Assembly: GCA_963681505.1 (NCBI GenBank)
Contig: OY811983.1
Location: 271,501-335,500, forward strand
DNA from: Eunapius fragilis
Lineage: Eukaryota > Porifera > Demospongiae > Spongillida > Spongillidae
Length of the DNA stretch: 64,000 nucleotides
Direction: 5' to 3'
Shown: positions 6,790 to 64,000 of the stretch, one piece after another
Layout: the number at the start of each line of letters is the position of its first letter
How positions within the stretch are numbered: the stretch's first letter is position 1
Notes under the pieces: generated by a model
Told to the model about the DNA's origin: nothing
The model's input: only the letters and a program-made list of their open reading frames with translations
The model's database searches: none
Translations under genes and position numbers: made by a program

Positions 6790-8096
6790 ATCCCACTACC
6801 AATCCCACTACCACTACCACTACCAATCACACTACCAATCCCACTACCACTACCACTACCTCTACCAATCCCACTACCAATCCCACTACCAATCCCACTA
6901 CCAATCCCACTACCACTACCACTACCACTACCAATCCCACTACCAATCTCACTACCAATCCCACTACCACTACCACTACCAATCCCACTACCAATCCCAC
7001 TACCAATCCCACTACCAATCCCACTACCAATCCCACTACCACTACCAATCCCACTACCAATCCCACTACCAATACCACTACCACTACCACTACTACTACC
7101 AATCCCACTACCAATCCCACTACCAATCCCACTACCAATCCCACTACCAATCCCACTACCACTACCAATCCCACTACCAATCCCACTATCAATACCACTA
7201 CCACTACCACTACCAATCCCACTACCAATCCCACTACCACTACCACTACCAATCCCACTACCACTACCACTACCAATTCCCCTAACAATCCCACTACCAC
7301 TACCACTACCACTACCAATCCCACTACCAATCCCACAACCAATCCCACTACCAATCCCACTACCAATCCCACTACCAATCCCACTACCAATCCCACTACC
7401 ACTACAAATCCCACTACCAATCCCACTACCAATCGCACTACCACTACCACTACTACTACCAATCCCACTACCAATCCCACTACCACTACCACTACCAATC
7501 CCACTACCAATCCCACTACCAATCCCACTACCAATCCCACTATCACTACCACTACCAATCCCACTACCAATCCCACTACCAATCCCACCACCTATCCCAC
7601 TACCAATCCCAATACCAATCCCACTACCAATCCCACTACCACTACCAATCCCAATACCAATCCCACTACCAATCCCACTACCACTACCACTACCACTACC
7701 AATCCCACTACCAATCCCACTACCACTACCACTTACAATCCCACTACCACTACCACTACCAATTCCCCTACCAATCCCACTACCACTAAAATTTCCACTA
7801 CCAATCCCACTAGCAATCCCACTACCAATCCCACTACCACTACCACTACCAATCCCACTACCAATCCCACTACCACTACCACTACCACTACTAATCCCAC
7901 TACCAATCCCACTACAAATCCCACTACCAATCCCACTACCACTACCAATCCCACTACCAATCCCACAACCAATCCCACTACCACTAGTGGGATTGGTAGT
8001 GGGATTGGTAGTGGTAGTGGTAGTGGTAGTGGGATGGGGAGTGGGATGGGGAGTGGGATTGGTAGTGGGATTGGTAGTGGTATTTGAAGTGGGATT
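6790..8096. repeat. CCCACTACCAAT array L4 with internal strand flip
   Basis: Repeats L3 with small unit losses, then switches orientation between 7985 and 7986 at CCACTACCACTAGTGGGATT, centred on ACTAGT. The last 110 bp read GGGATTGGTAGT on the top strand and end with GTATTTGAAGTGGGATTGCG, the reverse complement of the usual array entry. The flip therefore carries the satellite/array junction with it. Confidence 0.9.
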
Positions 8097-8662
8097 GCGG
8101 GATCCATCTGTAACAATCCAGCGCAATTCGGCGCGCTGCGACGGATTGGTGCATTTTTGCGGGATCAATCTGTAACAATTTGGCACAATTCGGCGCGCTG
8201 CGACGGATTGCAGCACTTTCGCGGAACTTATCTGTAACAATTCGGCGCACTACAACGGAATGCTGCACTATCGCCGGATCAATCTGCAACAATTCGTGGC
8301 AAATCGGCGCGCTGAGACCTATTGCTTCACTATGGCGGGATCAATCTGCAACAATTCGGCGCAATTCGGCGCGCTGAGACAGATTGCTGCACTTTCGCAG
8401 GATCAATCTGCAAATTGATCACGCCATAGTGAAGCAATCGGTCTTAGTGCGCCGAATTGCCCCTAATTGTTGCAGATTGATCCGGCGATAGTGCAGCAAT
8501 CCGTTGTAGCGCGCCGAATTGTTACAGATTGGTTCCGCGAAAGTGCTGCAATCCGTCGCTGCGCGCCGAATTGCGCCAAATTGTTACAGATTGATCCCGG
8601 AAAAGTGCACCAATCCGTCGCAGCGCGCCGAATTGCACTGGATTGTTACAGATTGATCCCGC
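8097..8662. repeat. 62-bp satellite block S5, head-to-head inversion
   Basis: 8097-8410 is in minus orientation and 8411-8662 in plus orientation. The switch is at the palindromic phrase GATCAATCTGCAAATTGATC (8401-8420). The minus part is the reverse complement of a normal exit block, attached to the flipped end of L4. The plus part runs to the usual exit into L5. Confidence 0.9.
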
Positions 8663-11113: not shown

Positions 11114-11679
11114 GCGGGATCAATCTGTAACAATCCAGCGCAATTCGGCGCGCTGCGACGGATTGGTGCATTTTTGCGGGATCAATCTGTAACAATTTGG
11201 CACAATTCGGCGCGCTGCGACGGATTGCAGCACTTTCGCGGAACCAATCTGTAACAATTCGGCGCACTACAACGGAATGCTGCACTATCGCCGGATCAAT
11301 CTGCAACAATTCGTGGCAAATCGGCGCGCTGAGACCGATTGCTTCACTATGGCGGGATCAATCTGCAACAATTCGGCGCAATTCGGCGCGCTGAGACAGA
11401 TTGCTGCACTTTCGCAGGATCAATCTGCAAATTGATCACGCCATAGTGAAGCAATCGGTCTTGGTGCGCCGAAATGCCCCTAATTGTTGCAGATTGATCC
11501 GGCGATAGTGCAGCAATCCGTTGTAGCGCGCCGAATTGTTACAGATTGGTTCCGCGAAAGTGCTGCAATCCGTCGCTGCGCGCCGAATTGCGCCAAATTG
11601 TTACAGATTGATCCCGCAAAAGTGCACCAATCCGTCGCAGCGCGCCGAATTGCACTGGATTGTTACAGATTGATCCCGC
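11114..11679. repeat. 62-bp satellite block S6, head-to-head inversion
   Basis: Copy of S5 displaced by 3017 bp: minus orientation to 11427, then plus. The same GATCAATCTGCAAATTGATC switch is at 11418-11437. It differs from S5 by only a few substitutions. Confidence 0.9.
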
Positions 11680-14531
11680 AATCCCACTTCAATTACCACT
11701 ACCAATCCCACTACCAATCCCACTACCAATCCCACTACCACTACCACTACCACTACCAATCCCACTACCACTACCACTACCAATCCCACTACCAATCCCA
11801 CTACCAATCCCACTACCAATCCCACTACCAATCCCACTACCACTACCAATCCCACTACCAATCCCACTACCAATCCCACTACCAATCCCACTACCAATCC
11901 CACTACCACTACCAATCCCACTACCAATCCCACTAAAAATCCCACTACCACTACCACTACCACTACCAATCCCACTACCAATCCCACTACCAATCCCACT
12001 ACCACTACCACTACCAATCCCACTACCAATCCCACTACCAATCCCACTACCAATCCCACTACCAATCCCACTACCAATCCCACTACCACTACCAATCCCA
12101 CTACCAATCCCACTACCAATCCCACTACCACTACCACTACCACTAGCAATCCCACTACCAATCCCACTACCACTACCACTACCAATCCCTCTACCACTAC
12201 CACTACCAATTCCCCTAACAATCCCACTACCACTACCACTACCAATCCCACTACCAATCCCTCAACCAATCCCACTACCAATCCCACTACCAATCCCACT
12301 ACCAATCCCACTACCAATCCCACTACCACTACCACTACAACTACCAATCCCACTACCAATCCCACTACCACTACCACTACCAATCCCACTACCAATCCCA
12401 CTACCAATCCCACTACCAATCCCACTACCACTACCACTAACAATCCCACTACCAATCCCACTATCAATCCCACCACCTATCCCACTACCAATCCCAATAC
12501 CAATCCCACTACCAATCCCACTACCACTACCAATCCCAATACTAATCCCACTACCAATCCCACTACCATTACCACTACCACTACCAATCCCACTACCAAT
12601 CCCATTACCACTATCACTTACAATCCCACTACCACTACCACTACCAATTCCCCTACCAATCCCACTACCACTAAAATTTCCACTACCAATCCCACTACCA
12701 ATCCCACTACCAATCCCACTACCACTACCACTACCAATCCCACTACCAATCCCACTACCAATCCCACTACCAATCCCACTACCAATCCCACTACCACTAC
12801 CAATCCCACTACCAATCCCACTACCAATCCCACTACCACTACCACTACCACTACCAATCCCACTACCAATCCAACTACCAATCCCACTTCCACTACCACT
12901 ACCAATCCCACTACCAATCCCACTACCAATCCCACTACCAATCCCACTACCACTACCAATCCCACTACCAATACCACTACCAATACCACTACCACTACCA
13001 CTACCACTACCAATCCCACTACCAATCCCACTACCAATCCCACTACCAATCCCACTACCACTACCACTACCAATTCCCCTAACAATCCCACTACCACTAC
13101 CACTACCACTACCAATCCCACTACCAATCCCACAACCAATCCCACTACCAATCCCACTACCAATCCCACTACCAATCCCACTACCAATCCCACTACCACT
13201 GCCAATCCCACTACCAATCCCACTACCACTACCACTACTACTACTACCAATCCCACTACCAATCCCACTACCACTACCACTACCAATCCCACTACCAATC
13301 CCACTACCAATCCCACTACCACTACCACTACCACTGCCAATCCCACTACCAATCCCACTACCACTACCACTACTACTACTACCAATCCCACTACCAATCC
13401 CACTACCACTACCACTACCAATCCCACTACCAATCCCACTACCAATCCCACTACCAATCCCACTACTACTACCACTACCAATCCCACTACCAATCCCACT
13501 ACCAATCCCACCACCTATCCCACTACCAATCCCATTACCAATCCCACTACCAATCCCACTACCACTACCAATCCCAATACCAATCCCACTACCAATCCCA
13601 CTACCACTACCACTACCACTACCAATCCCACTACCAATCCCACTACCACTACCACTTACAATCCCACTACCACTACCACTACCAATTCCCCTACCAATCC
13701 CACTACCACTAACATTTCCACTACCAATCCCACTACCAATCCCACTACCAATCCCACTACCACTACCACTACCAATCCCACTACCAATCCCACTACCACT
13801 ACCACTACCAATCCCACTACCAATCCCACTACCACTACCACTACCTCTGCCAATCCTACTACCAATCCCACTACCAATCCCACTACCAATCCCACTACCA
13901 CTACCACTACCACTACCAATTCCACTACCAATCCCACTACCAATCCCACTACCACTACCACTACCAATCCCACTACCAATCCCACTACCAATCCCACTAC
14001 CAATCCCAATACCACTACCAATCCCACTACCAATCCCACTACCAATACCACTACCACTACCACTACCACTACCAATCCCACTACCAATCCCACTACCACT
14101 ACCAATCCCACTACCACTACCACTACCAATTCCCCTAACAATCCCACTACCACTACCACTACCAATTCCCCTGCCAATCCCACTACCACTACAATTTCCA
14201 CTACCAATGCCACTACCAATCCCACTACCAATCCCACTACCAATCCCACTACCACTACCACTACCACTACCAATCCCACTACCAATCCCACTACCAATCT
14301 CACTACCAATCCCACTACCAATCCTACTACCAATCCCACTACTACTACCAATCCCACTACCAATCCCACTACCAATCCCACTACCAATCCCACTACCAAT
14401 CCCACTACCAATCCCACTACCACTACCAATCCCACTACCAATCCCACTACCAATCCCACTACCATGCCACTACTACTACCAATCCCACTACCAATCCCAC
14501 TACCACTACCACTACCAATCCCACTACGACT
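11680..14531 (+). repeat. CCCACTACCAAT array L6
   Basis: 2852 bp. It follows L5 with indels of whole units (offset 3017 bp at the start, about 3137 bp by position 12618), then continues with different variant blocks (CTACCTCTGCC, TTCCCCTGCC, ACCATGCCACTACT) and exits at CCACTACGACTAAACAATTG. The 957-codon PIPL frame over it is a repeat artefact. Confidence 0.95.
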
Positions 14532-14783
14532 AAACAATTGGTCACGGCACGCCAAATTGCCCCAAATTGTTACAGATTGATCCTGTGAAAGTGCAGGAAT
14601 CCGTTGCAGCGTGCCGAATTGTGCTGAATTTTTGCTGATTGGACCAAAGGCAGTGCAGCAATCGGTCGCAGCGCGCTGAATTGTGCCGAACAACATATTG
14701 CAGATTAATCCTGCGAAAGTGCAGCAATCCGTCTCAGCGCGCCGAATTGCGCTGGATTGTTACAGATTGATCATTGATCCCGC
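14532..14783 (+). repeat. 62-bp satellite block S7
   Basis: Four units of the S3 type with the TTTGCTGATTGGACCAAAGG variant shared with S9 and S10. The final unit has a local 6-bp duplication (GATTGATCATTGATCCCGC) just before the array. Confidence 0.9.
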
Positions 14784-15812
14784 AATCCCACTTCAATTAC
14801 CACTACCAATCCCACTACCAATCCCACTACCACTACCACTACCACTACCAATCCCACTACCACTACCACTAACAATCCCACTACCAATCCCACTACCAAT
14901 CCCACTACCAATCCCACTACCACTACCACTACCAATCCCACAACCAATCCCACTACCAATCCCACCACCAGTCCCACTACCAATCCCACTACCAATCCCA
15001 CTACCAATCCCACTACCACTACCAATCCCACTACAAATCCCACTACCAATCCCACTACCACTACCACTACCACTACCTATCCCACTACCAATCCCACTAC
15101 CACTACCACTTACATTCCCACGACCACTACCACTACCAATTCCCCTACCAATCCCACTACCACTAAAATTTCCACTACCAATCCCACTACCAATCCCACT
15201 ACCTATCCCACTACCACTACCACTACCAATCCCACTACCAATCCCACTACCAATACCACTACCAATCCAACTACCAATCCCACTACCAATCCGACTACCA
15301 CTACCAATCCCACTACCAATCCCACTACCAATCCCACTACCACTACCACTACCACTACCACTACCAATCCCACTACCAATCCCACTACCAATCCCACTAC
15401 CACTCCCACTACCAATCCCACTACCAATCCCACAACCAATCCCACTACCAATCCCACTACCACTACCAATCCCACTACCAATCCCACTACCAATACCACT
15501 ACCACTACCTCTACCACTACCAATCCCACTACCAATTCCACTACCACTACCACTACCAATCCCAATACCACTACCACTACCAATTCCCCTAACAATCCCA
15601 CTACCCCTACCACTACCACTACCAATCCCACTTCCAATCCCACTACCAATCCCACTCCCAATCCCACTACCAATCCCACTACCAATCCCACTACCAATCC
15701 CACTACCACTACCAATCCCACTACCAATCCCAATACCAATCCCACTACCACTACCACTACTACTACCAATCCCACTACCAATCCCACTACCACTACCAAT
15801 CCCACTACCACT
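14784..15812 (+). repeat. CCCACTACCAAT array L7
   Basis: 1029 bp with unusual variants: CACCAGTCCC, CTTACATTCCCACGACC, CCACTCCCACTACC, CTACCCCTACC and CCACTTCCAATCC. The ACGACC and CCCCTACC variants link it to L8 and L10. It exits at CCACTAAGCAATTGG. Confidence 0.95.
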
Positions 15813-16295
15813 AAGCAATTGGTCACGGCACGCCGAATTGCCCCAAATTGTTACAGATTGATCCTGTGAAAGTGCAGGAATCCGTCGCAGCGTGCCGAAT
15901 TGTGCTGAATTTTTGAAGATTGGACTAAAGACAGTGCAGCAATCGGTTGCAGCGCGCCGAATTGTGCCGAATAACATATTGCAGATTGATCCTGCGAAAG
16001 GCAGCAATCCGTCTCAGCGCGCCGAATTGCGCCGAATTGTTGCAGATTGATCCTGCCGTAGTGAAGCAATCGGTCTCAGCACGCCGATTTGCCACAAATT
16101 GTTGCAGATTGATCCGGCGATAGTGCAGCATTCCGTTGTAGTGCGCCGAATTGTTACAGATTGGTTCCGCGAAAGTGCTGCAATCCGTCGCAGCGCGCCG
16201 AATTGTGCCAAATTGTTACAGATTGATCCCGCAAAACTGCACCAATCCGTTGCAGCGCGCCGAATTGCGCTGGATTGTTACAGATTGATCCCGCA
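15813..16295 (+). repeat. 62-bp satellite block S8
   Basis: About eight units. A longer variant of the S3 type that adds the CTGCCGTAGTGAAGC and CCGGCGATAGTGCAGC units before the exit. The same composite returns at 21979-22461, displaced by 6166 bp, including a one-base-short GCGAAAGGCAGC unit in both copies. Confidence 0.9.
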
Positions 16296-19141
16296 ATCCC
16301 ACTTCAATTACCACTACCAATCCCACTACCAATCCCACTCACCATCCCACTACCACTACCACTACCACTACCACTACCAATCCCACTACCACTACCACTA
16401 CCAATCCCACTACCAATCCCACTACCAATCCCTCTACCAATCCCACTACCAATCCCACTACCACTACCAATCCCACTACCAATCCCACGACCAATCCCAC
16501 CACCAATCCCACTACAAATCCCACTACCAATCCCACTACCAATCCCACTACCACTACCAATCCAACTACCATTCCCACTACCATTCCCACTACCACTACC
16601 ACTACCATTACCAATCCCACTACCAATCCCACTACCACTACCACTACCATTACCAATCCCACAACCAATCCCACTACCAATCCCACTACCAATCCCACTA
16701 CCAATCCCACTACCAATCCCACTACCAATCCCACTTCCAATCCCACTACCAATCCCACTACCACTACCACTACCACTACCACTACCAATCCCACTACCAC
16801 TACCACTACCAATCCCACTACCAATCCCACTACCAATCCCACTACCAATCCCACTACCAATCCCACTACCACTACCACTACAAATCCCACTACCAATCCC
16901 ACTACCAATCCCACCACCAATCCCACTACCAATCCCACTACCAATCCCACTACCAATCCCACTACCACTACGAATCCCACTACAAATCCCATTACCATTC
17001 CCACTACCACTACCACTACCACTACCTATCCCACTACCAATCCCACTACCACTACCACTTACAATCCCACGACCACTACCACTACCATTTCCCCTACCAA
17101 TCCCACTACCACTAAAATTTCCAATACCAATCCCACTACCAATCCCACTACCAATCCCACTACCACTACCACTACCAATCCCACTACCAATCCCACTACC
17201 AATCCCACTACCAATCCCACTACCAATCCCACTACCAATCCCACTACAACTACCAATCCCACTACCAATCCCACTACCAATCCCACTACCATTTCCCCTA
17301 CCAATCCCACTACCACTAAAATTTCCACTACCAATCCCACTACCAATCCCACTACCAATCCCACTACCACTACCACTACCTCTACCAATCCCACTACCAA
17401 TCCCACTACCAATCCCACTACCAATCCCTCTCCCCATCCCACTACCACTACCACTACCAATCCCACTACCAATCCCACCACCAATCCCACTACCAATCCC
17501 ACTACCAATCCCACTACCAATCCCACTACCACTACCACTACCACTACCAATCCCACTACCAATCCCACTACCACTACCACTTACAATCCCACTTCCACTA
17601 CCACTACCAATTCCTCTACCAATCCCACTACCACTAAAATTTCCACTACCAATCCCACTACCAATCCCACTACCACTACCACTACCAATCCCACTACCAA
17701 TCCCACTACCAATCCCACTACCAATCCCACTACCAATCCCACTACCACTACCACTTACAATCCCACTTCCACTACCACTACCAATTCCTCTACCAATCCC
17801 ACTACCACTAAAATTTCCACTACCAATCCCACTACCAATCCCACTACCAATCCCACTACCACTACCACTACCAATCCCACTACCAATCCCACTACCAATC
17901 CCACTACCAATCCCACTACCAATCCCACTACCACTACCAATCCCACTACCAATCCCACTACCAATCCCACTACCACTACCACTACCACTACCAATCCCAC
18001 TACCAATCCCACTACCACTACCACTACCAATCCCACTACCACTACCACTACCAATTCCCCTACCAATCCCACTACCACTACAATTTCCACTACCAATGCC
18101 ACTACCAATCCCACTACCAATCCCACTACCAATCCCACTACCAATCCCACTACCAATCCCACTACCACTACCAATCCCACTACCAATCCCACTATTGCTA
18201 CCACTACCACTACCAATCCCACTACCAATCCCACTACCAATCCCACCACCACTACCAATACTAATCCCACTACCAATCCCACTACCAATCCCACCACCAA
18301 TCCCACTACCAATCCCACTACCAATCCCACTACCAATCCCACTACCACTACCAATCCCACTACCAATCCCACTACCAATCCCACTATCACTACCACTACC
18401 ACTACCAATCCCACTACCAATACCACTTACAATCCCACTACCACTACCACTACCAATTCCCCTACCAATCCCACTACCACTAAAATTTCCACTACCAATC
18501 CCACTACCAATCCCACTACCAATCCCACTACCACTACCACTACCAATCCCACTACCAATCCCACTACCTATCCCACTACCAATCCCACTACCAATCCCAC
18601 TACCAATCCCACTACCACTACCAATCCCACTACCAATCCCACTACCAATCCCACTACCATTACCACTACCACTACCAATCCCACTACCAATCCCACTACC
18701 AATCCCACTACCACTACCACTACCAATCCCACTACTAATCCCACTACCAATCCCACTACCAATCCCACTACCAATCCCACTATCACTACCAATCCCACTA
18801 CCAATACCACGACCAATACCACTACCACTACCACTACCACTACCAATCCCACTACCAGTCCCACTACCACTACCACTACCAATCCCACTACCACTACCAC
18901 TACCAATTCCCCTAACAATCCCACTACCACTACCACTACCACTACCAATCCCACTACCAATCCCACTACCAATCCCACTACCAATCTAAATACCAATCCC
19001 ACTACCAATCTCACTACCAATCCCACTACCACTACCAATCCCACTACCAATCCCACTACCAATCCCACTACCACTACCACTACTACTACCAATCCCACTA
19101 CCGATCCCACTACCACTACCACTACCAATCCCACTACGACT
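16296..19141 (+). repeat. CCCACTACCAAT array L8
   Basis: 2846 bp. It starts with the variant CACTCACCATCCCAC (shared with L11). The AAAATTTCCAC / AATTCCCCTACC or AATTCCTCTACC marker pair recurs about six times at intervals of 150-500 bp, which shows an intermediate repeat inside the array. The 904-codon PIPL frame is an artefact. Confidence 0.95.
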
Positions 19142-19387
19142 AAACAATTGGTCACGGCACGCCGAATTGCCCCAAATTGTTACAGATTGATTCTGTGAAA
19201 GTGCAGGAATCCGTCGCAGCGTGCCGAATTGTGCTAAATTTTTGCTGATTGGACCAAAGACAATGCAGCAATCGGTCGCAGCGCGCCGAATTGTGCCGAA
19301 TAACATATTGCAGATTAATCCTGCGAAAGTGCAGCAATCCGTCTCAGCGCGTAGAATTGCGCTGGATTGTTACAGATTGATCCCGCA
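19142..19387 (+). repeat. 62-bp satellite block S9
   Basis: Four units with the CAAAGACAATGCAGC variant. Head of a 1574-bp higher-order repeat whose next copy starts at 20716. Confidence 0.9.
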
Positions 19388-20715
19388 ATCCCACTTCAAT
19401 TACCACTACCAATCCCACTACCATTCCCACTACCAATCCCACTACCACTACCACTACCACTACCAATCCCACTACCACTACCAATCCCACTACCAATCCC
19501 ACTACCAATCCCACTACCAATCCCACTACCAATCCCACTACCACTACCACTACCAATCCCACTACCAATCCCACTACCAATCCCACCACCAATCCCACTA
19601 CCAATCCCACTACCAATCCCACTACCAATCCCACTACCACTACCAATCCCACTACAAATCCCACTACCAATCCCACTACCACTACCACTACCACTACCTA
19701 TCCCACTACCAATCCCTCTACCAATACCACTTACAATCCCACTACCACTACCACTACCAATTCCCCTACCAATCCCACTACCACTAAAATTTCCACTACC
19801 AATCCCACTACCAATCCCACTACCAATCCCACCACCACTACCAATACTAATCCCACTACCAATCCCACTACCAATCCCACCACCAATCCCACTACCAATC
19901 CCACTACCAATCCCACTACCAATCCCACTACCACTACCAATCCCACTACCAATCCCACTACCAATCCCACTACCACTACCACTACCACTACCAATCCCAC
20001 TACCAATACCACTTACAATCCCACTACCACTACCACTACCAATTCCCCTACCAATCCCACTACCACTAAAATTTCCACTACCAATCCCACTACCAATCCC
20101 ACTACCAATCCCACTACCACTACCACTACCAATCCCACTACCAATCCCACTACCTATCCCACTACCAATCCCACTACCAATCCCACTACCACTACCAATC
20201 CCACTACCAATCCAACTACCAATCCCACTACCATTACCACTACCACTACCAATCCCACTGCCAATCCCACTACCAATCCCACTACCACTACCACTACCAA
20301 TCCCACTACTAATCCCACTACCAATCCCACTACCAATCCCACTACCAATCCCATTACCACTACCAATCCCACTACCCCAACCACGAACAATACCACTACC
20401 ACTACCACTACCACTACCAATCCCACTACCAGTCCCACTACCACTACCACTACCAATCCCACTACCACTACCACTACCAATTCCCCTAACAATCCCACTA
20501 CCACTACCACTACCACTACCAATCCCACTACCAATCCCACTACCAATCCCACTACCAATCTAAATACCAATCCCACTACCAATCTCACTACCAATCCCAC
20601 TACCACTACCAATCCCACTACCAATCCCACTACCAATCCCACTACCACTACCACTACTACTACCAATCCCACTACCGATCCCACTACCACTACCACTACC
20701 AATCCCACTACGACT
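19388..20715 (+). repeat. CCCACTACCAAT array L9
   Basis: 1328 bp. Its first part carries CTACCATTCCCAC and CCACCACCAATCC variants that recur in L10, and its end (ACCAATCTAAATACCAATCC, CTACCGATCCC, CTACGACTAAAC) repeats the end of L8. L9 is thus made from segments shared with both neighbours. Confidence 0.95.
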
Positions 20716-20961
20716 AAACAATTGGTCACGGCACGCCGAATTGCCCCAAATTGTTACAGATTGATCCTGTGAAAGTGCAGGAATCCGTCGCAGCGTGCCG
20801 AATTGTGCTGAATTTTTGCTGATTGGACCAAAGACAATGCAGCAATCGGTCGCAGCGCGCCGAATTGTGCCGAATAACATATTGCAGATTAATCCTGCGA
20901 AAGTGCAGCAATCCGTCTCAGCGCGCAGAATTGCGCTGGATTGTTACAGATTGATCCCGCA
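20716..20961 (+). repeat. 62-bp satellite block S10
   Basis: Copy of S9 displaced by 1574 bp, with one substitution visible in the last unit (GCGCAGAATT here against GCGTAGAATT). Confidence 0.9.
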
Positions 20962-21978
20962 ATCCCACTTCAATTACCACTACCAATCCCACTACCATTC
21001 CCACTACCAATCCCACTACCACTACCACTACCACTACCAATCCCACTACCACTACCAATCCCACTACCAATCCCACTACCAATCCCACTACCAATCCCAC
21101 TACCAATCCCACTACCACTACCACTACCAATCCCACTACCAATCCCACTACCAATCCCACCACCAATCCCACTACCAATCCCACTACCAATCCCACTACC
21201 AATCCCACTACCACTACCAATCCCACTACAAATCCCACTACCAATCCCACTACCACTACCACTACCACTACCTATCCCACTTCCAATCTTACTACCACTA
21301 CCACTTACAATCCCACGACCACTACCACTACCAATTCCCCTACCAATCCCACTACCACTAAAATTTTTTACTACCAATCCCACTACCAATCCCACTACCA
21401 ATCCCACTACCACTACCACTACCAATCCCACTACCAATCCCACTACCAATCCCACTACCAATCCCACTACCAATCCCACTACCAATCCCACTACCACTTC
21501 CAATCCCACTACCAATCCCACTACCAATCCCACTACCACTACCACTACCACTACCAATCCCACTACCAATCCCACTACCAATCCCTCTACCACTACCACT
21601 ACCAATCCCACTACCAATCCCGCTACCAATCCCACTACCAATCCCACTACCACTACCAATCCCACTACCAATCCCACTACCAATACCACTACCACTACCA
21701 CTACCACTACCAATCCCACTACCAATTCCACTACCACTACCACTACCAATCCCACTACCACTACCACTACCAATTCCCCTAACAATCCCACTATCCCTAC
21801 CACTACCACTACCAATCCCACTACCAATCCCACTCCCAATCCCACTACCAATCCCACTACCAATCCCACTACCAATCCCACTAACACTACCAATCCCACT
21901 ACCAATCCCAATACCAATCCCACTACCACTACCACTACTACTACCAATCCCACTACCACTACCAATCCCACTACCACT
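20962..21978 (+). repeat. CCCACTACCAAT array L10
   Basis: 1017 bp. The first ~400 bp copy L9. An ACTAAAATTTTTTACTACC variant at about 21357-21375 is the only T6 run in the arrays. The rest resembles L7 (TAACACTACC, CTATCCCTACC). Exit at CCACTAAGCAATTGG. Confidence 0.95.
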
Positions 21979-23550: not shown

Positions 23551-26408
23551 CTATGCATGACTCCTTCAGGAGTCATTCATAGTGACATCCTTAACTCCTG
23601 CAAGAGTCATGCATGGAGATACTTGACTCTTGCAGGAGTCATACATATTGCAATATTTGACTCCTGCAGGAGTCATACATTGAGATACTTGACTCCTGCA
23701 GGAGTCATGCAAACATATAGTTGACTCCTGCCGGAGTAATACATACTGACATACTTGACTTCTGCAGGAGTCATAAATATTGAAATACTTGACTCCTGCA
23801 GGAGTCATACATTGAAATACTTGACTCCTGCAGGAGTCATAATTGAAATACTTGACTCCTGCAGGAGTCATACATTGAAATAGGTCTTAAGTGACATACT
23901 TGACTCCTGCAGGAGTCATACATACTGAGATACTTGACTGCTGCAGGAGTCATCCATGGAGATACTTGACTCCTGCAGGAGACATACATTGAGATACTTG
24001 ACTCCTACAGGAGTCTTGCATACTGACATACATGACTCCTGCAGGAGTCATGCAAATATATATTTGACTCCTGCAGGAGTCATACAAACTGACATACTTG
24101 ACTCCTGCCGGCAGGATTTATGCATGGAGATACATGTCTCCTGGAGGAGTCATACATATTGACATACTTTACTCCTATACAGGAGTCATTCATTGAAATA
24201 CTTGACTCCTGCAGGAGTCATTCATTGTGAAATATTTGACTCCTGCAGCTGTCATCCAATCTGACATACTTGACTCCTGCAGGAGTCATGCAAATCTATA
24301 GTTGATTCCTGCAGGAGTCATACATATTGACATACTTGACTCCTGCAGGACTCATACATTCTGACATACATAACTCCTGCAGGAGTCATACATGGAGATT
24401 ACTCACTCCTGCAGGAGTCATACAAATTGACTTATGACTCCTGCAGGAGTCATTGATACTGACATATTTGACTCCTGCAGGAGTCAGGCATGGAGATATA
24501 TGACTCTTGCAGTAGTCATACATTTTGACATATTTGACTCCTGCAGGAGTCATACATTGAAATACTTGAGTCCTGCAGGAGTCATAAATTGAGATACTTG
24601 ACTCCTGCAGGAGTCAATGATACTGACATACTTGACTCCTGCAGGTGTCATGTATGGAGATCCTTGACTCCTGCAAGAGTCTTACATATTGATATTCTTG
24701 ACTCCTGCAGGAGTCATTCATTGAAATACTTCACTCCTGCACGAGTCATATATTGAAATACGTGACTCCGGCAGGAGTCATTCATAGTGACATATTTGAC
24801 TCCTGCAGGAGTCATTCATGGAGATTGCTCACTCCTGCCGGAGTCATACATATTGACATATGACTCCTGCAGTAGTCATTGATACTGACATACTTGACTC
24901 CTTCAGGTGTCATACATGGAGATACTTGACTCCTGCAGGAGTCATACATATAGAAATACTTGACTCCTGCAGGAGTCATACATTGAAATACTTGACTCCT
25001 GCAGGTTTCATACATTGAAATACTTGACTCCTGCAGGAGTCAGACATATTGACATACTTGACTCCTGCAGGAGTCATACATTGATATAATTGACTCCTGC
25101 AGGAGTCAGACATATTGACATACTTGACTCCTGCAGGAGTCATAATTGAAATAATTGACTCCTGCAGGAGTCATTCATTGAAATACTTGAGTGACATACT
25201 TGACTGCTGTAGGTATCACACATACTGACATACTTGACTCCTGCAGGAGTCATGCTTGGAGATACGTGACTACTGCAGGAGTCATTCATAGTGACATATT
25301 TCACACCAGCGGGAGTCATACATGGAGATTGCTCACTCCTGCCGGAGTCATACATATTGACATATGACTCCTGTAGTAGTCATTGATACTGACATACTTT
25401 ACTCCTTCAGGTGTCATACATGGAGATAATTGACTCCTGCAGGAGTCATACATATTGAAATACTTGACTCCTGCCGGAGTTATACATTGAAATACTTGAC
25501 TCCTGCAGGAGTCAGACATTTTAAAATACTTGTCTCCTGCAGGAGTCAGACATATTGATATACTTGACTCCTGCAGGAGTCATAATTGAAATAATTGACT
25601 CCTGCAGGAGTCATACATTGAAATACTTGAGTGACATACTTGACTACTGCAGGAGTCATGCATACCAACATACTTGACTCCTGCAGGAGTCATGCTTGGA
25701 GATACTTGACTCCTGCAGGAGTCATTCATTGAGGTACTTGACTTCTGCAGGAGTCATTCATTGTAACATATTTGACTCCTGCAGCAGGCATACAAACTGA
25801 CATATTTGACTCCTGCAGGAGTCATGCAAATATATAGTTGACTCCTGCAGGAGTCATAAATACTGACATACTTGACTCCTGCAGGAGTCATAAATATTGA
25901 AATACTTGACTCCTGCAGGAGTCATACATTGAAGTACTTGACTCCTGCAGGAGTCAGACATATTGACATTCTTGACTCCTGCAGGAGACATAATTTAAAT
26001 ACTTGACTCCTGCATACATTGAAATTCTTGAGTGACATACTTGACACTTGCAGGAGTCATACATAATGACATACTTGACTCCTGCAGGAGTCATGCATGG
26101 AGATACTTGACTCCTGCAGGAGTCGTACATTGAGATACTTGACTCCTGCAGGAGTCTTGCATACTGACATACTTGACTCCTGCAGGAGTCATGCAAATAT
26201 ATAGTTGACTCATGCAGGAGTCATATATACTGGCATACTTGAAATACTTCACTCCTGCACGAGTCATATATTGAAATACGTGACTCCTGCAGGAGTCATT
26301 CATAGTGACATATTTGACTCCTGCAGGAGTCATACATGGAGATTGCTCACTCCTGCCGGAGTTATACATATTGACATATGACTCCTGTAGTAGTCATTGA
26401 TACTGACA
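23551..26408. repeat. PstI palindromic satellite, cluster P1
   Basis: Tandem array of the 20-bp perfect palindrome ATGACTCCTGCAGGAGTCAT (PstI site CTGCAG at the centre), spaced by 12-18 bp AT-rich linkers; the period is mostly 32-36 bp. Linkers fall into a few recurring types (ACATTGAAATACTT, ACATACTGACATACTT, GCAAATATATAGTT, ACATGGAGATACTT, TCATAGTGACATATTT) in repeated orders, so units were amplified in groups. Each unit could extrude a short hairpin. ORFs rich in DSCRSQV or TPAGVKY are readings of the repeat. Confidence 0.95.
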
Positions 26409-26411
26409 CAC

Positions 26412-26692
26412 AAGTAAATAAAAACATTCTCTACGAGAAAGATGGTGGGATATAGGATTTGATTATGACATTGGTGGTGCAAAAAGCAAGGAAACAAGGT
26501 CTTATCAGAAGGGAAAATGTCATAGTCCTATTTTAGCACATTTCTAGGACATGTGTTGTTTGTGTGCTAAATATAGGACTATGACATTTCCCCTTCTGAT
26601 AAGACCTTGTTACCTTGCTTTTTACACCACCAATGTCACAATCAAATCCTATATCCCACCAACTTTCTCGTAGAGAATGTTTTTATTTACTT
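26412..26692. repeat. Foldback with ~130-bp inverted arms
   Basis: Left arm 26412-26540 and right arm 26563-26692 are near-perfect reverse complements (AAGTAAATAAAAACATTCTC at one end, GAGAATGTTTTTATTTACTT at the other), separated by a loop of about 22 bases. Differences are few (AGAAAGATGG against CCAACTTTCT, GCAAAAAGC against GCTTTTTAC). It could be a non-autonomous foldback element or the hairpin of a larger element. No coding potential and no clear target duplication. Confidence 0.85.
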
Positions 26693-26736
26693 GCTTTCTT
26701 TATTTTTTTTCATACCCATTTTATTATACAAGACAT

Positions 26737-26869
26737 TAGTCTCGTACCCAGACCGTCTATGACGTAAGCGATTATCGCTGTAAACAGTATAATCACTACG
26801 TCCATACGTATGGACGTAGTGTTTACAGCGATAATCGCTTATGTCATAGACGGTCTGGGTACGAGACTA
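26737..26869. mobile_element. Palindromic MITE with 9-bp target duplication
   Basis: The 133-bp element begins TAGTCTCGTACCCAGACCG and ends with its reverse complement. The pairing continues to a central 28-bp perfect palindrome (CACTACGTCCATACG and its complement), broken only by a GTATAAT-like insertion of about 7 bases in the left half and one substitution. It is flanked by ACAAGACAT at 26728-26736 and 26870-26878. A 9-bp duplication is the usual mark of Mutator-like transposases, so a MULE-mobilised MITE is likely; no transposase is present. Confidence 0.85.
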
Positions 26870-26916
26870 ACAAGACATAGGAGGCTGATAGTCGATTGTT
26901 TATCAATGTATTATAT

Positions 26917-26926
26917 TATATAAAAG
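26917..26926 (+). promoter_or_regulatory. TATA box in the insertion island
   Basis: TATATAAAAG, a strong match to the RNA polymerase II TATA element, about 80 bases upstream of the first ATG of the 90-codon ORF at 26997. A start site about 30 bases downstream would give a leader of roughly 50 bases. No initiator or other promoter element is obvious. Confidence 0.35.
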
Positions 26927-26996
26927 CGAGTCCTCCAGCCGATTCTGAAGCTATTGGTGTAATTTTCATCGCTTAGAAATGTTCCTGTCCTGAGTT

Positions 26997-27269
26997 ATGC
27001 GTGGGCAAGAAGGAGAAGACGACCCGCCCCTTGTTCCGAGACTGGGTACGAGGACGGGCAGTACACTCTTGTTCTCAACAACCACGCGGTTCAGCGACAT
27101 GAAACAAAAACGAAACTACTCATTTTTGACTTCTAGATCGATTGCTAAAAGAAGCTACACGACCCGATCGTCGGGAGTGTTGTTACAGACGGGTCGCGTT
27201 ATTTTAATGACATTCATAGTCGGGGTCAAATCCTATATGGAAGTTTCTAACGAAACTCCCGATACTTGA
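26997..27269 (+). CDS. Hypothetical 90-codon ORF, truncated by satellite
   Basis: I do not recognise this ORF. It starts at the ATG in GTTATGCGTGGG, 71 bases after a TATATAAAAG box, and encodes a basic, serine/threonine- and arginine-rich peptide with no signal peptide or known motif. It is one of very few ORFs in the window outside satellite sequence. Its last two residues and stop come from the PstI satellite (GATACTTGA), so any original C-terminus is missing. The AT-rich upstream and mixed-composition body could also be a transposon remnant. Confidence that it is a real gene is low. Confidence 0.2.
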   Translation: MRGQEGEDDPPLVPRLGTRTGSTLLFSTTTRFSDMKQKRNYSFLTSRSIAKRSYTTRSSGVLLQTGRVILMTFIVGVKSYMEVSNETPDT

Positions 27270-28105
27270 CTCCTTCAGGTGTCATACATGGAGATACTTG
27301 ACTCTTGCAGGAGTCATACATATTGAAATACTTAACTCCTGCAGGAGTTATACATTGAAATACTTGACTCCTGCAAGAGTCAGACATATTGATTTACTTG
27401 ACTCCTGCAGGAGTCATAATTGAAATAATTGACTCCTGCAGGAGTCATACATTGAAATACTTGAGTGACATACTTGACTCCTGCAGGAGTCATACATTGA
27501 GATACTTGACTCCTGCAGGAGTCTTGCATACTGACATACTTGACTCCTGCAGGAGTCATGCAAATATATGTATGACTCCTGCAGGAGTCATACATACTGA
27601 CATACTTGACTCCTGCAGGAGTCATACATACTGACATACTTGACTCCTGCAGGAGTCATGCATGTAGATACTTGACTCCTGCAGGAGTTATACATTTAGA
27701 TACTTGACTCCTGCAAGAGTCTTGCATACTGACATACTTGACTCCTGCAGGAGTCATGCAAATATATAGTTGACTCATGCAGGAGTCATACATACTGGCA
27801 TACTTGAAATACTTCACTCCTGCACGAGTCATATATTGAAATACGTGACTCCTGCAGGAGTCATTCATAGTGACATATTTGACTCCTGCAGGAGTCATTC
27901 ATGGAGATTGCTCACTCCTGCCGGAGTCATACATATTGACATATGACTCCTGTAGTAGTCATTGATACTGACATACTTGACTCCTTCAGGTGTCATACAT
28001 GGAGATACTTGACTCCTGCAGGAGTCATACATATTGAAATACTTGACTCCTGCAGGAGTCAGACATATTGACATACTTGACTCCTGCAGGAGTCATAATT
28101 GAAAA
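27262..28105. repeat. PstI palindromic satellite, cluster P2
   Basis: Continuation of P1 beyond the insertion island. It contains the composite block also found near 24726-24915, 26242-26405 and 63660-63860: CACTCCTGCACGAGTCATAT, CGTGACTCCTGCAGG, a GAGATTGCTCACTCC linker, then GACTCCTGTAGTAGTCATTG. It ends at ATAATTGAAAAAGAATCG and a 20-base non-repeat link to the next array. Confidence 0.95.
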
Positions 28106-59595: not shown

Positions 59596-60282
59596 TGTAC
59601 AACCACTGGATACTTTGAAATTTGCCATAGCCTTGCCTTACACCTTTCATCCTTTAGAAATGTGTGGCACAGGAGCGAGGACAGACTGCCCACGCAAGAC
59701 CGAACTTTGTTCTCGTCTATTGAACTTCCATCGATGTACGTTCCTAATTACTTTTTTGTATAGCGTCCGCACATTTGGCCGTTGATACAAGTTTTTTCTA
59801 TTAACTAAGCTTCCCACACGACTGGCGTGCCACCTACGAGCTTAATTCACATCTGCTAGGCCACGTTCAATATTATATCTCTAAGCCGTGCGATTCAAAC
59901 GCACTACCGTACCTACCTTGTCACCTAAATTAAGTCGTTGTCCATGAATTAACCAGGCTTCACTTACACGTGTGGCGTGTCTTTTACCAGCTAGCTTGAC
60001 ACCTGCAGTGCCATGTATAATTTGAACACACGTATGCAGCGGTAGTAAAAAGCACTACAGTACCTGCATACAGTGGCGTAGCAAGGGGGGGGCAAGGGGG
60101 GCGGTCGCCCCGGGCGCCGAGTTGAGAGGGGCGCTAAAATCGTGGGGAAAAAAAATTTTTTATAGGTCAAACAAAAATTTTAAAAGTAGGTCTAAGGTCA
60201 GGCTCAGCATAATTTCTTTGATAATCGTACGGTACCGGTTGTATTCAGGCTCACTCAAGGAAAAATTATATAGCGATCATTT

Positions 60283-60629
60283 CAGAGGCGGATCCAGGGG
60301 GGGGGTTTTGGGGGTTGCAACCCCCCCTTTCATATATGGTAACGCCCCCTCTTCTGCTAAACAGCCCCTCCCCGCTTTTTATATCGGGCCTGAAGCGCCG
60401 GACAGCACTCCCCCCCCCCCCCCCCTCTGCTTTTCGTATTGGGCCTTAAATGGACAGCACCCCCCCCCCGCCACTTTTCGTATCGGCCTGAAGCGGACAG
60501 CACCCCCCCCCCCCCCCCCCCCCCCCCGCTTTCCGTGTCGGGCCTGAAGCGGACAGCACCCCCCCCCCCCCCGCATTTCGTCTCGCGGGTCTCAACCCCC
60601 CCTTTTTGAAAACCCTGTATCCGCCCCTG
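60283..60629. mobile_element. Nested CAGAGGCGGATCC-ended element
   Basis: Starts CAGAGGCGGATCCAGGGGGG and ends CCCTGTATCCGCCCCTG, imperfect inverted ends of a type common in hAT-like MITEs. Only CATTT is repeated at both flanks (60278-60282 and 60630-60635 region), shorter than the usual 8-bp duplication, so the target site has decayed or the end call is off by a few bases. It lies within the 672-bp element, so it inserted later or both moved together. Confidence 0.65.
60358..60600. repeat. Tandem ~60-bp repeat with poly-C tracts
   Basis: About four units of the form GCTTTTCGTATCGGGCCTGA, AGCGGACAGCA, then a C run of 9 to more than 20. The C-run length is variable and probably slippage-prone and hard to sequence. 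Glycine-rich ORFs on the minus strand derive from it. Confidence 0.85.
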
Positions 60630-60974
60630 CATTTGCATGTTATTTCTAATATTTATTTGTGAAATACGTTTGACTTGAGGTTATGGGAGGGGCGCCAACA
60701 AGTAGCTCGCCCCGGGCGCCAGGAGACCTTGCTACGCCACTGCCTGCATATGGCCTTGTCACTTAGGTAAGGTTACATGTGCCACGATGGGCTTGTTAGA
60801 ACATCTTGATGCACTATGGGAAGGACCATCCACCCACCAACCCACCCAACAGACTTACAAATTTTCCTTGCATAAATTGTATAGAAGCGCACATACTGGA
60901 ACTACATCATTTTAAGTGTACACTGTATTACATGTCCTTAGTATGTGAAGAAACATCGCACTGCAAATTAAAAC

Positions 60975-61779
60975 TATTAGTCATACATACTGACATACTT
61001 GACTCCTGCAGGAGTCATACATTGAAATACTTGACTCCTGCAGGAGTCATGCAAGTATAGAGTTGACTCCTGCAAGAGTCATACATAATGATATATTTGA
61101 CTCCTGCAGGAGTCATACATTGAAATACTTGAGTCATACATTGAAATACTTGACTCCTGCAGGAGTCATTGATACTGACATACTTGACTCCTGCAGGTGT
61201 CATGCATGGAGATCCTTGACTCCTGCAAGAGTCATACATATTGACATTCTTGACTCCTGTAGGAGTCATTCATTGAAATACTTCACTCCTGCAGGAGTCA
61301 TACATTGAAATACTTGACTCCTGCAGGAGTCATTCATAGTGACATATTTGACTCAGGCTGGTGTCATACATACTGACATACTTGACTCCTGCAGGAGTCA
61401 TACATGGAGATTTTTCACTCCTGTAGGAGTCATGCATGGAGATACTTGACTCCTGCAGAAGTCATACATATGGACATCCTTGACTCCTGCAGGAGTCATA
61501 CATTGAAATACTTGACTCCTGCAGGAGTCTTGCATAGTGACATACTTGACTCCTGCAGGAGTCATACAATGAGATACTTGACTCCTGCAGGAGTCATACA
61601 AATTGACATATTTTACTCCTGCAGGAGTCATTCATTGAAATATTTGACTCCTGCAGTACTCATGCATACTGACAAACTTGACTCTTGTAGGAGTCATACA
61701 TTGAAATACTTGACTCCTGTAGGAGTCATTGATAGTGACATATTTGACTCCTGAAGCAGTCATCCCATCTGACATACTT
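60975..61779. repeat. PstI palindromic satellite, cluster P3
   Basis: Same ATGACTCCTGCAGGAGTCAT family and linker types as P1 and P2, outside the long inverted repeat. It begins directly after arm sequence at AAACTATTAGTCATACATAC and is interrupted at 61780 by the chimeric retroelement. Confidence 0.95.
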
Positions 61780-61907
61780 TGTGATGTCTGATACACAACT
61801 AAATCCAAAACCGGGATTATGGAATGTCAATTACAACGTGCACTCAACTTAAATAGTCCAATTAATGCAATCACTGCGCATGCTCCTACTAAGTCCAGTT
61901 CTTCACA
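61780..61907 (-). repeat. 128-bp LTR, left copy (sense on minus strand)
   Basis: On the minus strand it starts TGTGAAGAACTGG and ends TCAGACATCACA, with TGTGA/TCACA inverted termini as expected for an LTR. It follows the pol stop codon and a polypurine tract directly, so it is in the 3' LTR position. Confidence 0.75.
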
Positions 61908-61920
61908 TATCTTTTCCCCT
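61908..61920 (-). other. Polypurine tract
   Basis: On the minus strand AGGGGAAAAGA followed by TA sits between the pol stop and the LTR, the normal position of the plus-strand primer in LTR retrotransposons. The right copy (62971-62984) has the same tract. Confidence 0.6.
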
Positions 61921-62214
61921 AAGAAAAACCCGCTTGATATTTTTCAACTTTTTTCTTGTTTCTCCTAGGTCTTCCTTCGGGTTCCCGTACATCCGGTACC
62001 TGCCTATTCGGTCCCCCTCCTTGCTCTGCCTCCTCTAGTACTGCATCATAGTCATCCAGTCTTTCCTCTACTCCAACTTGTCTGGGTACTTCGTCGTGTT
62101 GTCTTGTTTCCTGTTCATTCTCGTTTGCTGTTCCAGTGACTTCCTCTGTCGGAATCCACTCCTCCAAGCACCCAGTACTGCGTTTCCGTATCTGATCCTG
62201 ATGTCTCCAAAGCC
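61919..62214 (-). pseudogene. Gypsy pol C-terminal fragment
   Basis: Open on the minus strand to TAG at 61919-61921. In-frame sequence from about 62214 reads WLWRHQDQIRKRS, the W-RH-DQ-R tail found after the integrase in many Gypsy-type polyproteins, then an acidic linker (about residues 15-70) and a basic end with RPRRNKKKVEKYQ. There is no proper start, since the upstream part is 28S rRNA, so it is a truncated fragment. About 92 bp at its 3' end are duplicated in inverted orientation at 62881-62973. Confidence 0.75.
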
Positions 62215-62408
62215 ACCTAATATCTCGGCAGCCAATCGGCCGCGTATGGGGTTCTCACCCTCTATGACGCGCCATTCCAGGTCAACTTTGGCCGACCGAC
62301 TACCGAGCGCAGGTGCCTCTCTCGGCTACAATTCGCCGGCTTTTCGCCGGAGATTTAAGACTCGAGCTATTCCCGCTTCACTCGCCGTTACTGGGGGAAT
62401 CCCTGTTG

Positions 62409-62441
<33 letters not shown>

Positions 62442-62472
62442 TTCAGCGGGTAGTCACGCCTGAGCTGAGGTC
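62215..62472 (-). rRNA. 5' end of 28S rRNA (fragment)
   Basis: On the minus strand the sequence runs GACCTCAGCTCAGGCG, then the universal LSU primer region ACCCGCTGAATTTAAGCATA and TCAATAAGCGGAGGAAAAGA, then AACGGCGAGTGAAGCGGGAA and GTTGACCTGGAATGG. This is the first ~250 bases of eukaryotic 28S rRNA through the start of the D1 region. The 5' limit coincides with the conserved start of mature 28S. The 3' limit is uncertain by about 25 bases. It is not a working rRNA gene, being embedded in retrotransposon sequence. Confidence 0.9.
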
Positions 62473-62787
62473 CAGTTTTGAAAATATCTTCGCTCCTGCC
62501 AAGGTGGCTAACAAATCCTCTATTTTTGGAATAGGATATCTATCTACTTCCAAAGCTGGGTTTATTGTTAACCGGAAATCACCACAAATCCTAATCTTTT
62601 TATCTGTCTTCACCACTGGCACTATTGGGGCTGCCCATTCTGCTATTTCCACTGGCTCTAAAATACCCTCCCTGGTCAGTCTATCCAACTCTTCTTCCAC
62701 CTGTCCCTTCAAAGCATATGGCACCGGGCGAGCCTTACAAAACTTAGGCACTATCCCATCTTTTATCACCAGTTTTGCTTTCAACAG
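62465..62787 (-). pseudogene. Gypsy reverse transcriptase fragment
   Basis: About 107 codons on the minus strand: KAKLVIKDG, then KARPVPYAL, VEEELDRL, GILEPVE, EWAAPIVPV, IRICGDFR, then YPIPKIEDLLATL and FSKLDLS. This is the N-terminal part of a Gypsy/Ty3-type RT palm, ending at motif A with its catalytic aspartate in KLDL. The YxDD box, RNase H and integrase are missing because the sequence passes into 28S rRNA at GGACCTCAG. The frame is open and fused upstream to a gag fragment. Confidence 0.9.
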
Positions 62788-62880
62788 CAACCTTTTTTGG
62801 ATTCTTTCATCATTTACTCCACACACGAGCCTGTCTCTTAACATTTCTGACAGCGCTTGCCCAAAATTACACCTTCTCGC
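62785..62880 (-). pseudogene. Gypsy gag fragment fused to RT
   Basis: 32 codons on the minus strand with CNFGQALSEMLRDRLVCG and NDERIQKRLL, matching the conserved FG-AL-EMLRDRLVCG-ND-RIQ-RLL segment of Gypsy-type gag. In an intact element gag lies more than a kilobase before RT; here it runs straight into RT without a frame break. Upstream (62881 on) it abuts the antisense copy of the pol C-terminus. Confidence 0.8.
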
Positions 62881-62973
62881 CCGAATAGGCAGGTACCGGA
62901 TGTACGGGAACCCGAAGGAAGACCTAGGAGAAACAAGAAGCAAGTTGAAAAATATCAAGCGGGTTTTTTATAG
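62881..62973 (+). pseudogene. Inverted copy of pol C-terminal codons
   Basis: Plus-strand frame reading PNRQVPDVREPEG, RPRRNKKQVEKYQAGF, then TAG at 62971-62973. It matches the last codons of 61919-62011 in reverse orientation, with one K-to-Q change and a changed penultimate codon. It leads into the right-hand polypurine tract and LTR. Confidence 0.75.
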
Positions 62974-62984
62974 GGGAAAAGATA

Positions 62985-63112
62985 CGTGAAGAACTGGACT
63001 TAGTAGGAGCATGCGCAGTGATTGCATTAATTGGACTATTTAAGTTGAGTGCACGTTGTAATTGACATTCCATAATCCCGGTTTTGGATTTAGTTGTGTA
63101 TCAGACATCACA
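62985..63112 (+). repeat. 128-bp LTR, right copy (inverted)
   Basis: Same length as the left copy and in opposite orientation. The two differ at only one visible position, the second base pair end (CGTGAAG here against TGTGAAG). Both lie in the 3' position relative to their own pol C-terminus. Confidence 0.75.
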
Positions 63113-64000
63113 TATTTGACTTCTGCAGGAGTCATGCAAATATATAGTTGACTCCAGCAGGAGTCATACATTCTGACATATTAGACTCCAGCAGCAGTCA
63201 TCCAATCTGACATACTTGACTCCTGCAGGAGTCATGCAAATATATAGTTGACTCCTGCAGGAGTCATACATATTGACATACTTGACTCCTGCAGGACTCA
63301 TACATTCTAACATACTTGACTCCTGCAGGAATCATACATGGAGATTGCTCACACCTTCAGGAGTCATACAAATTGACATATGACTCCTGCAGGAGTCATT
63401 GATACTGACATACTTGACTCCTGCAGGAGTCATGCATGGAGATACTTGACTCTTGCAGGAGTCATACGTATTGACATAATTGACTCCAGCAGGAGTCATA
63501 CATTGAAATACTTCAATCCTGCGGGAGTCATACATTGAGATACTTGACTCCTGCAGGAGTCATTGATACTGACATACTTGACTCCTGCAGGTTTCATGTA
63601 TGGAGATCCTTGACTCCTGCAAGAGTCATACATATTGACATTCTTGACTCCTGCAGGAGTCATTCAATGAAATACTTCACTCCTGCAGGAGTCATATATT
63701 GAAATACGTGACTCCTGCAGGCGTCATTGATAGTGACATATATTACTCCTGCAGGAGTCATACATGGAGATTGCTCACTCCTGCAGGAGTCATACATATT
63801 GACATATGGCTCCTGTAGTAGTCATTGATACTGACATACTTGACTCCTTCAGGAGTCATACATGGAGATACTTGACTCCTTCAGGAGTCATACATGGAGA
63901 TACTTGACTCCTGCAGGATTCATACATATTGATATACTTGACTCCTGCAGGAGTCATACATTGAAATACTTGACTCCTGCAGGAGTCAGACATATTGACA
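63113..64000. repeat. PstI palindromic satellite, cluster P4
   Basis: Resumes after the chimeric element and continues past the window edge. It contains the composite linker order also seen in P1 and P2 (GAGATTGCTCAC, GACTCCTGTAGTAGTC, GACTCCTTCAGG in order, around 63760-63860). Some units here are degenerate (CCAGCAGG, CCAGCAGC). Confidence 0.95.

What the first reader, a model, noticed from the sequence alone, without database searches (positions are those of the whole stretch)
61780..63112. Snap-back chimeric retroelement with inverted LTRs and an rRNA core
A Gypsy 3' end (pol C-terminus, polypurine tract, 128-bp LTR) is present twice in inverted orientation, around a mosaic of gag, RT, 28S rRNA and pol. 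Ordinary LTR elements have direct LTRs. The order fits one reverse-transcription product that switched template several times and then copied back on its own end. Its near-identical arms and a likely 5-bp target duplication suggest that it was integrated as a unit by integrase, since both ends present a correct LTR terminus.
Basis: partly seen in the sequence, partly recalled or inferred. Interest (0 to 1): 0.9.

Follow-up and report, generated by a model that had tools for sequence, protein, structure and literature searches.

The report
Inverted-LTR retroelement with rRNA core
A faulty copy of a retrotransposon, stitched together with a piece of ribosomal RNA and capped at both ends by the same terminus, was inserted once into a tandem repeat and was later copied to several chromosomes with the surrounding DNA.

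Summary
The 1333-bp mosaic is real DNA: 11 full-length copies on 8 contigs, with private mutations, plus one remnant. The copies share the same flanks, so there was one insertion, later spread by duplication of satellite blocks. Seven paralogous blocks still hold the empty site (98.5-98.8% over 582-595 bp). They show that 1333 bp arrived with a 5-bp target duplication, TACTT/TATTT. Two relatives with direct 128-bp LTRs also have 5-bp duplications.
In cDNA order the parts are Gypsy 3' end, 28S to near its 5' end, RT, gag, and an inverted copy of the 3' end. Junctions 1-3 have 5, 1-4 and 11 nt of microhomology; the fold-back junction has none. Both arms share four bases absent from the six genomic 3' ends examined, and two copies have identical arms. 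So both arms derive from one molecule or one parent.
Best reading: an error-ridden reverse transcript, closed by copy-back (or by joining two sister cDNAs), was integrated through two U5 ends. Later spread was passive; no second transposition was seen.

The parts
61775..61779 (.). left copy of the 5-bp target-site duplication (tactt)
   Evidence: present once in 9 of 9 empty satellite sites examined
61780..61907 (-). 128-bp LTR, antisense in the window; outer end is the U5 end (TGTGATG... = reverse complement of ...CATCACA)
   Evidence: matches LTRs of ordinary elements at C5 and C2
61908..61920 (-). polypurine tract next to the LTR (sense AGGGGAAAAGATA)
   Evidence: read directly; same string before the 3' LTR of C5, one base different in C2
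61921..62208 (-). 3' end of pol of the Gypsy-like element
   Evidence: window 61780-62208 is 98.1% identical to the C5 and C2 3' ends
62204..62473 (-). 5' end of 28S rRNA, ending within a few nt of the conserved 28S 5' start; overlaps pol by 5 nt (TCTCC) and RT by 1-4 nt
62471..62780 (-). N-terminal part of the reverse transcriptase coding region
   Evidence: 98.5-98.8% to C5/C2; protein piece matches Ty3 and other RTs
62770..62880 (-). gag fragment; overlaps the RT piece by 11 nt (CAGTTTTGCTT)
   Evidence: 97-99% to C5/C2; sub-threshold Pfam Retrotrans_gag match
62881..63112 (+). right arm: inverted second copy of the 3' end (pol end, PPT 62972-62984, LTR 62985-63112)
63113..63117 (.). right copy of the target-site duplication, one base changed (tattt)
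60979..61779 (.). satellite with palindromic core TGACTCCTGCAGGAGTCA that received the insertion, left side
63118..64000 (.). same satellite, right side

Best explanation
One defective reverse transcript of a Gypsy-like LTR retrotransposon, integrated as a unit. Inferred path: (1) minus-strand cDNA began at the primer site, made the U5-R end, transferred to the 3' end of the genomic RNA and copied U3, PPT and the end of pol; (2) it switched to 28S rRNA at TCTCC and copied it almost to the rRNA's 5' end; (3) from there it went back to element RNA in the RT region; (4) it switched to gag through 11 nt of identity; (5) its 3' end, stalled in gag, copied back from the minus-strand cDNA itself (or a sister strand), starting 104 nt on the pol side of the LTR and running out to the cDNA 5' end. 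This gave inverted 232-nt arms that both end in U5. (6) The second strand was completed; a strong-stop cDNA annealed to the new sense R-U5 end could have primed it. (7) Integrase inserted the linear duplex through two U5 ends with a 5-bp duplication. (8) Duplication of satellite blocks, mostly near contig ends, then carried it passively to 8 contigs. Steps 7 (unit insertion with 5-bp duplication) and 8 are shown, except that integrase itself is inferred. Steps 1-4 are well supported by the junctions. Step 5 is likely. Step 6 is conjecture.
For: Nine of 9 empty satellite sites align best to the joined flanks at an overlap of exactly 5 nt (0-9 tried); 7 of the 9 are 98.5-98.8% identical over 582-595 bp. 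Both termini lie exactly at LTR ends TG...CA. C5 and C2 elements have direct LTRs and 5-bp duplications AGGAT and ATAGC. The internal pieces are all sense on one strand, and the Gypsy pieces run 3' to 5' along the element. Microhomology is 5, 1-4 and 11 nt at junctions 1-3. The 28S piece reaches 22-23 nt before CCCGC, where the Rfam hit begins at model position 24. Both arms carry the same four bases (arm positions 19, 33, 155, 177), absent from 6 of 6 genomic 3' ends examined (of 7 that one search matched over most of query 1-429). Two of 11 copies have identical arms, so no arm-arm difference is common to all copies. All 11 full copies have the same flanks, and copies group by shared variants.
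Against: The copy-back junction (62880/62881) has no microhomology, which also fits end joining. A simple hairpin has only one duplex end, so an extra second-strand step must be assumed. None of the 6 ordinary 3' ends examined carries the four arm-specific bases, so the exact parent was not found. The target duplication has one mismatch; the right copy TATTT could also be TAT from the LTR-PBS spacer (CATCACA-TAT-TGG in C5 and C2) plus a 2-bp overlap. The 28S 5' boundary is inferred by homology: no intact rDNA unit turned up, and the Rfam search of the genome did not complete.
Confidence: 0.6

Rival explanations
1. Two defective sister cDNAs of the same element, one the gag-RT-28S-pol chimera and one a truncated 3' end, were joined head to head by end joining before integration; integrase then used the two free U5 ends.
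For: The gag/arm junction has no microhomology. The product is directly a linear duplex with two U5 ends. Shared arm bases only require the same parent element.
Against: Needs two truncated, double-stranded cDNAs from the same variant. The other three junctions look like RT switching, so a second process must be added.
Confidence: 0.25
2. An ordinary Gypsy insertion was rearranged in place by replication template switching (fold-back, rDNA capture) before the satellite block was duplicated.
For: Satellites and inverted repeats are prone to such events (general knowledge). Both LTR ends share TGTGA/TCACA, a possible switch point.
Against: It must replace the U3 terminus by a U5 terminus exactly at the duplication, capture rRNA in sense near its 5' end, and keep Gypsy pieces in reverse-transcription order.
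Confidence: 0.1
3. The mosaic is a non-autonomous element that transposes repeatedly, with LTR-derived terminal inverted repeats used by Gypsy integrase.
For: 11 near-identical full-length copies on 8 contigs, with LTR termini at both ends.
Against: All 11 full copies share the same flanking sequence, and in the one remnant the surviving side does too. Homology continues into flanking non-satellite sequence. No copy found lies in a different site.
Confidence: 0.03
4. Assembly or library chimera.
For: Inverted repeats and satellite are hard to assemble (general knowledge).
Against: 11 loci on 8 contigs with private substitutions and groups of shared variants.
Confidence: 0.01

Closest known systems
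LTR-mediated retroposition (Tan et al. 2016, cited in PMC5408686; I read only passages of PMC5408686; Tan et al. is not held)
   Same: Cellular RNA joined to LTR-element sequence by template switching at short similarities, then integrated by integrase
   Different: Here the captured RNA is 28S rRNA, and the product has inverted 3' ends with two U5 termini instead of direct LTRs
Defective retroviral DNAs with inverted LTR sequences (recalled: Olsen and Swanstrom 1985, J Virol; not held, not read)
   Same: Recalled as aberrant reverse transcripts with inverted terminal sequence
   Different: Not checked; here the product is integrated in a host genome with a target duplication and carries rRNA
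Copy-back defective genomes of negative-strand RNA viruses (recalled)
   Same: Nascent strand copies its own end, giving complementary termini
   Different: RNA replication there; here reverse transcription followed by DNA integration
DIRS-1 class tyrosine-recombinase retrotransposons (PMC5633606, two passages read)
   Same: Inverted LTRs
   Different: DIRS is thought to integrate circular intermediates by a tyrosine recombinase; here Gypsy parts, direct-LTR relatives and a 5-bp target duplication
LINE chimeric retrogenes with several RNA templates (PMC2104539, PMC13174262; seen only in the listing with the start of the abstracts)
   Same: Several RNA templates in one reverse transcript
   Different: Made by LINE machinery, without LTR ends

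Membership tests
Gypsy-like LTR retrotransposon derivative | LTR, PPT and pol/gag sequence homologous to elements with direct LTRs | tested here: met
   3' end, RT and gag pieces match C5 and C2 at 97-99%; against the C5/C2 5' LTRs the window copy is 95-97%; six loci (C2, C4, C5, C6, C15, C16) show both LTRs in direct orientation
Gypsy-like LTR retrotransposon derivative | 5-bp target-site duplication like that of the relatives | tested here: met
   (9 of 9 empty sites, overlap 5); one mismatch between the two copies; for C5 and C2, the two relatives examined
Ordinary LTR element | LTRs in direct orientation, PBS behind the 5' LTR, U3 terminus at one end | tested here: not met
   inverted arms, both ends U5; no PBS follows either LTR
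LTR-mediated retroposition chimera | Cellular RNA inserted between element parts with short similarity at the junctions | tested here: met
   28S with 5 nt and 1-4 nt overlaps
DIRS-type element | No target-site duplication (recalled) | tested here: not met
   5-bp duplication
DIRS-type element | Tyrosine recombinase in the autonomous relatives | not tested
   the middle of the ordinary elements was not fetched and no recombinase was sought
TIR transposon active in trans | Copies at independent target sites | tested here: not met
   same flank in 11 of 11 full copies and on the surviving side of the remnant

The most novel reading that the evidence does not exclude
Copy-back reverse transcription is a regular side pathway of LTR retrotransposons. 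It yields integration-competent DNA with two U5 ends and no U3 terminus, and could found families with LTR-derived terminal inverted repeats.
Probability: 0.12. Interest if true: 0.75.

Novelty: new variant of a known kind. Interest (0 to 1): 0.52.

Why it matters
It is a readable natural record of several reverse-transcription errors in one molecule, with empty sites, relatives and 11 copies to read them from. It suggests that a Gypsy-type integrase can insert DNA presenting two U5 ends, that 28S rRNA was available as template in the particle, and that inverted LTRs can arise without a tyrosine recombinase. The four arm-shared bases and the blunt fold-back junction make copy-back versus cDNA joining testable.

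Tried and rejected
Assembly chimera: rejected (11 loci with private variants). Repeated transposition: rejected for these copies (same flank). DIRS: rejected (5-bp duplication). Other inverted pairs of this LTR family: each scoring 40 of 43 candidates, showed inverted pairs only at the 11 mosaic copies; other Gypsy families were not searched. The copy count of 11 comes (40 of 68 candidates scored); the 28S piece gave the same 11 with 20 of 20 scored.

The C10 28S-like stretch is itself a truncated piece, 94% alike, so it could not define the 28S end; C1 and C5 hold shorter 28S-derived pieces. No intact rDNA unit turned up; a pattern of the 28S start hit 13 places: the 11 mosaics, C1 and C5. 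Pfam at E<=0.001 gave nothing for four frames.

Dropped before a count: the per-position arm table used 8 of 11 full copies (three of other length left out). The four diagnostic sites were read in all 11; copy C21's right arm shows another base at two of them (155, 177), which I put down to register shift, since its arms differ by 4 gap bases. One of 7 genomic 3' ends matched (C16:4956656-4957059, 85%) was not examined. The empty-site set was 9 loci: the seven best left-flank matches after the 12 mosaic and remnant loci, plus two weaker ones; one search scored 40 of 1638 candidates, so more may exist.

Literature: ten searches; in their listings I saw no paper describing an integrated copy-back LTR element with rRNA. 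The library holds only open-licence papers, so this is weak evidence of absence. Read: passages of PMC5408686 and PMC5633606; all other papers were seen in search listings only.

Full report
Observation. The window holds two 232-nt arms in inverted orientation, 61780-62011 and 62881-63112, 98% complementary and 869 nt apart, set in a satellite with a palindromic core. Between them lie, on the minus strand, pol 3' end, 28S rRNA (Rfam, E=2.3e-31), RT and gag pieces. The RT assignment is firm (Ty3 Gag-Pol 7q5b E=1.2e-9, 4ol8 E=2.4e-10; 1821 of 1871 candidate proteins at E<=0.001), although Pfam gave nothing at 0.001 and RVT_1 only at 0.0013. The gag assignment is weaker (Retrotrans_gag E=0.045, PNMA E=0.038, both below cut-off), but the piece lies about 0.4 kb behind the 5' LTR of the C5 and C2 elements.

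Genome copies. The 219-Mb genome (24 contigs, unnamed organism) holds 11 full-length copies at 98-100% on 8 contigs (C4, C7, C9 four times, C10, C13, C16, C21, C22) and a 220-bp remnant on C19 (40 of 68 candidates scored; the same 11, 20 of 20 scored). Pairwise differences are 4-21 substitutions, so these are separate loci and the structure is not an assembly artefact. All 11 have the same 90-bp flanks on both sides, apart from a few substitutions, and the remnant has the left flank. Homology with the window continues beyond the satellite into other sequence at 95.3-99.8%. The copies therefore descend from one insertion by block duplication. Shared variants group C4, C7, C10, C16 and C21, and three or all four of the C9 copies. 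Apart from those on C9, the 12 loci lie within about 0.43 Mb of a contig end (positions, contig lengths); that these ends are subtelomeres is inference.

Empty site. Searching the left 140 bp found blocks without the mosaic. In nine of nine examined, the joined flanks align best with an overlap of exactly 5 nt (overlaps 0-9 tried), seven at 98.5-98.8% over 582-595 bp and two at 82-86%. The same peak at 5 appears with satellite units inside the window. The empty site has TACTT once; the filled site has TACTT left and TATTT right in 11 of 11 full copies. The C/T difference is common in this satellite (TACTT 32, TATTT 8 of 47 matched strings in the window). An alternative for the changed base is that TAT comes from the LTR-PBS spacer, which reads TAT in C5 and C2.

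Relatives. Elements at C5 and C2 have direct 128-bp LTRs differing at 1 and 2 bases between the two LTRs, and 5-bp duplications AGGAT and ATAGC. Six loci (C2, C4, C5, C6, C15, C16) show LTRs in direct orientation at both ends; among the scored matches inverted pairs occur only at the mosaics. Both mosaic ends are U5 ends; the U3 terminus, the PBS and a 5' LTR in normal position are missing.

Junctions. Pol/28S shares TCTCC (5 nt; the 28S side was read from the 94% C10 copy). 28S/RT shares 1 nt with the C1 rDNA piece, up to 4 nt (GTCC) if the species' 28S has the usual GACCTC start (recalled). RT/gag shares CAGTTTTGCTT (11 nt). Gag/arm shares none. The 28S piece runs 22-23 nt beyond CCCGC, the point where the Rfam hit starts at model position 24. 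By recalled yeast and human 28S starts this is within about 2-4 nt of the mature 5' end. That fits a polymerase that ran to the end of an rRNA and then switched.

Arms. At arm positions 19, 33, 155 and 177 both arms carry bases absent from 6 of 6 genomic 3' ends examined (a seventh was not), in 11 of 11 left arms and in 11, 11, 10 and 10 of 11 right arms; the exception at 155 and 177 is C21, put down to register shift. C4 and C10 have identical arms, so no site separates left from right arms in all copies. The arms were therefore most likely identical at insertion and come from one molecule or one parent variant. This agrees with copy-back but does not exclude joining of sister cDNAs, and gene conversion between arms before amplification would look alike.

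Mechanism. Segment order, sense orientation and junctions fit minus-strand synthesis with switches pol to 28S to RT to gag and then copy-back onto the cDNA 5' end. A plain hairpin would have one duplex end, whereas the 5-bp duplication implies a linear duplex with two active ends. A second strong-stop cDNA annealing to the new sense R-U5 end could prime the missing strand; this is conjecture. Because U3 and U5 ends share TGTGA/TCACA, use of two U5 ends by integrase is plausible.

Verdict. As far as the copies found show, it is a single event spread passively, so it is a new variant of LTR-mediated template-switch chimeras and not a new class of element.

Noticed in passing
window 23558-28104, 60979-61779, 63101-64000: Satellite with palindromic core TGACTCCTGCAGGAGTCA, matched on many contigs.
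   Followed up: partly
window 3002-21976 and 29967-53874: Very long 12-bp tandem arrays (CAATCCCACTAC / GGGATTGGTAGT) on opposite strands, interleaved with a 62-bp satellite.
   Followed up: no
L038:4294-4605 (C10): Truncated 28S-like stretch, 94% like the mosaic's 28S piece, beginning near CCCGC; looks like an independent rRNA-derived insertion.
   Followed up: partly
L043:354-540 (C1) and L042:379-469 (C5): Short 28S 5'-end pieces; the C1 one is followed by what looks like 18S 3'-end sequence without 5.8S between (18S recognised from memory).
   Followed up: no
L012:3026-3245 (C19:5908825-5909044): Remnant of the mosaic: left arm 1-220 with its flank kept, the rest deleted.
   Followed up: partly
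window 60375-60572: Poly-C rich minisatellite; the stretch from about 60070 to 60743 is not aligned among the duplicated blocks at 90% identity.
   Followed up: no
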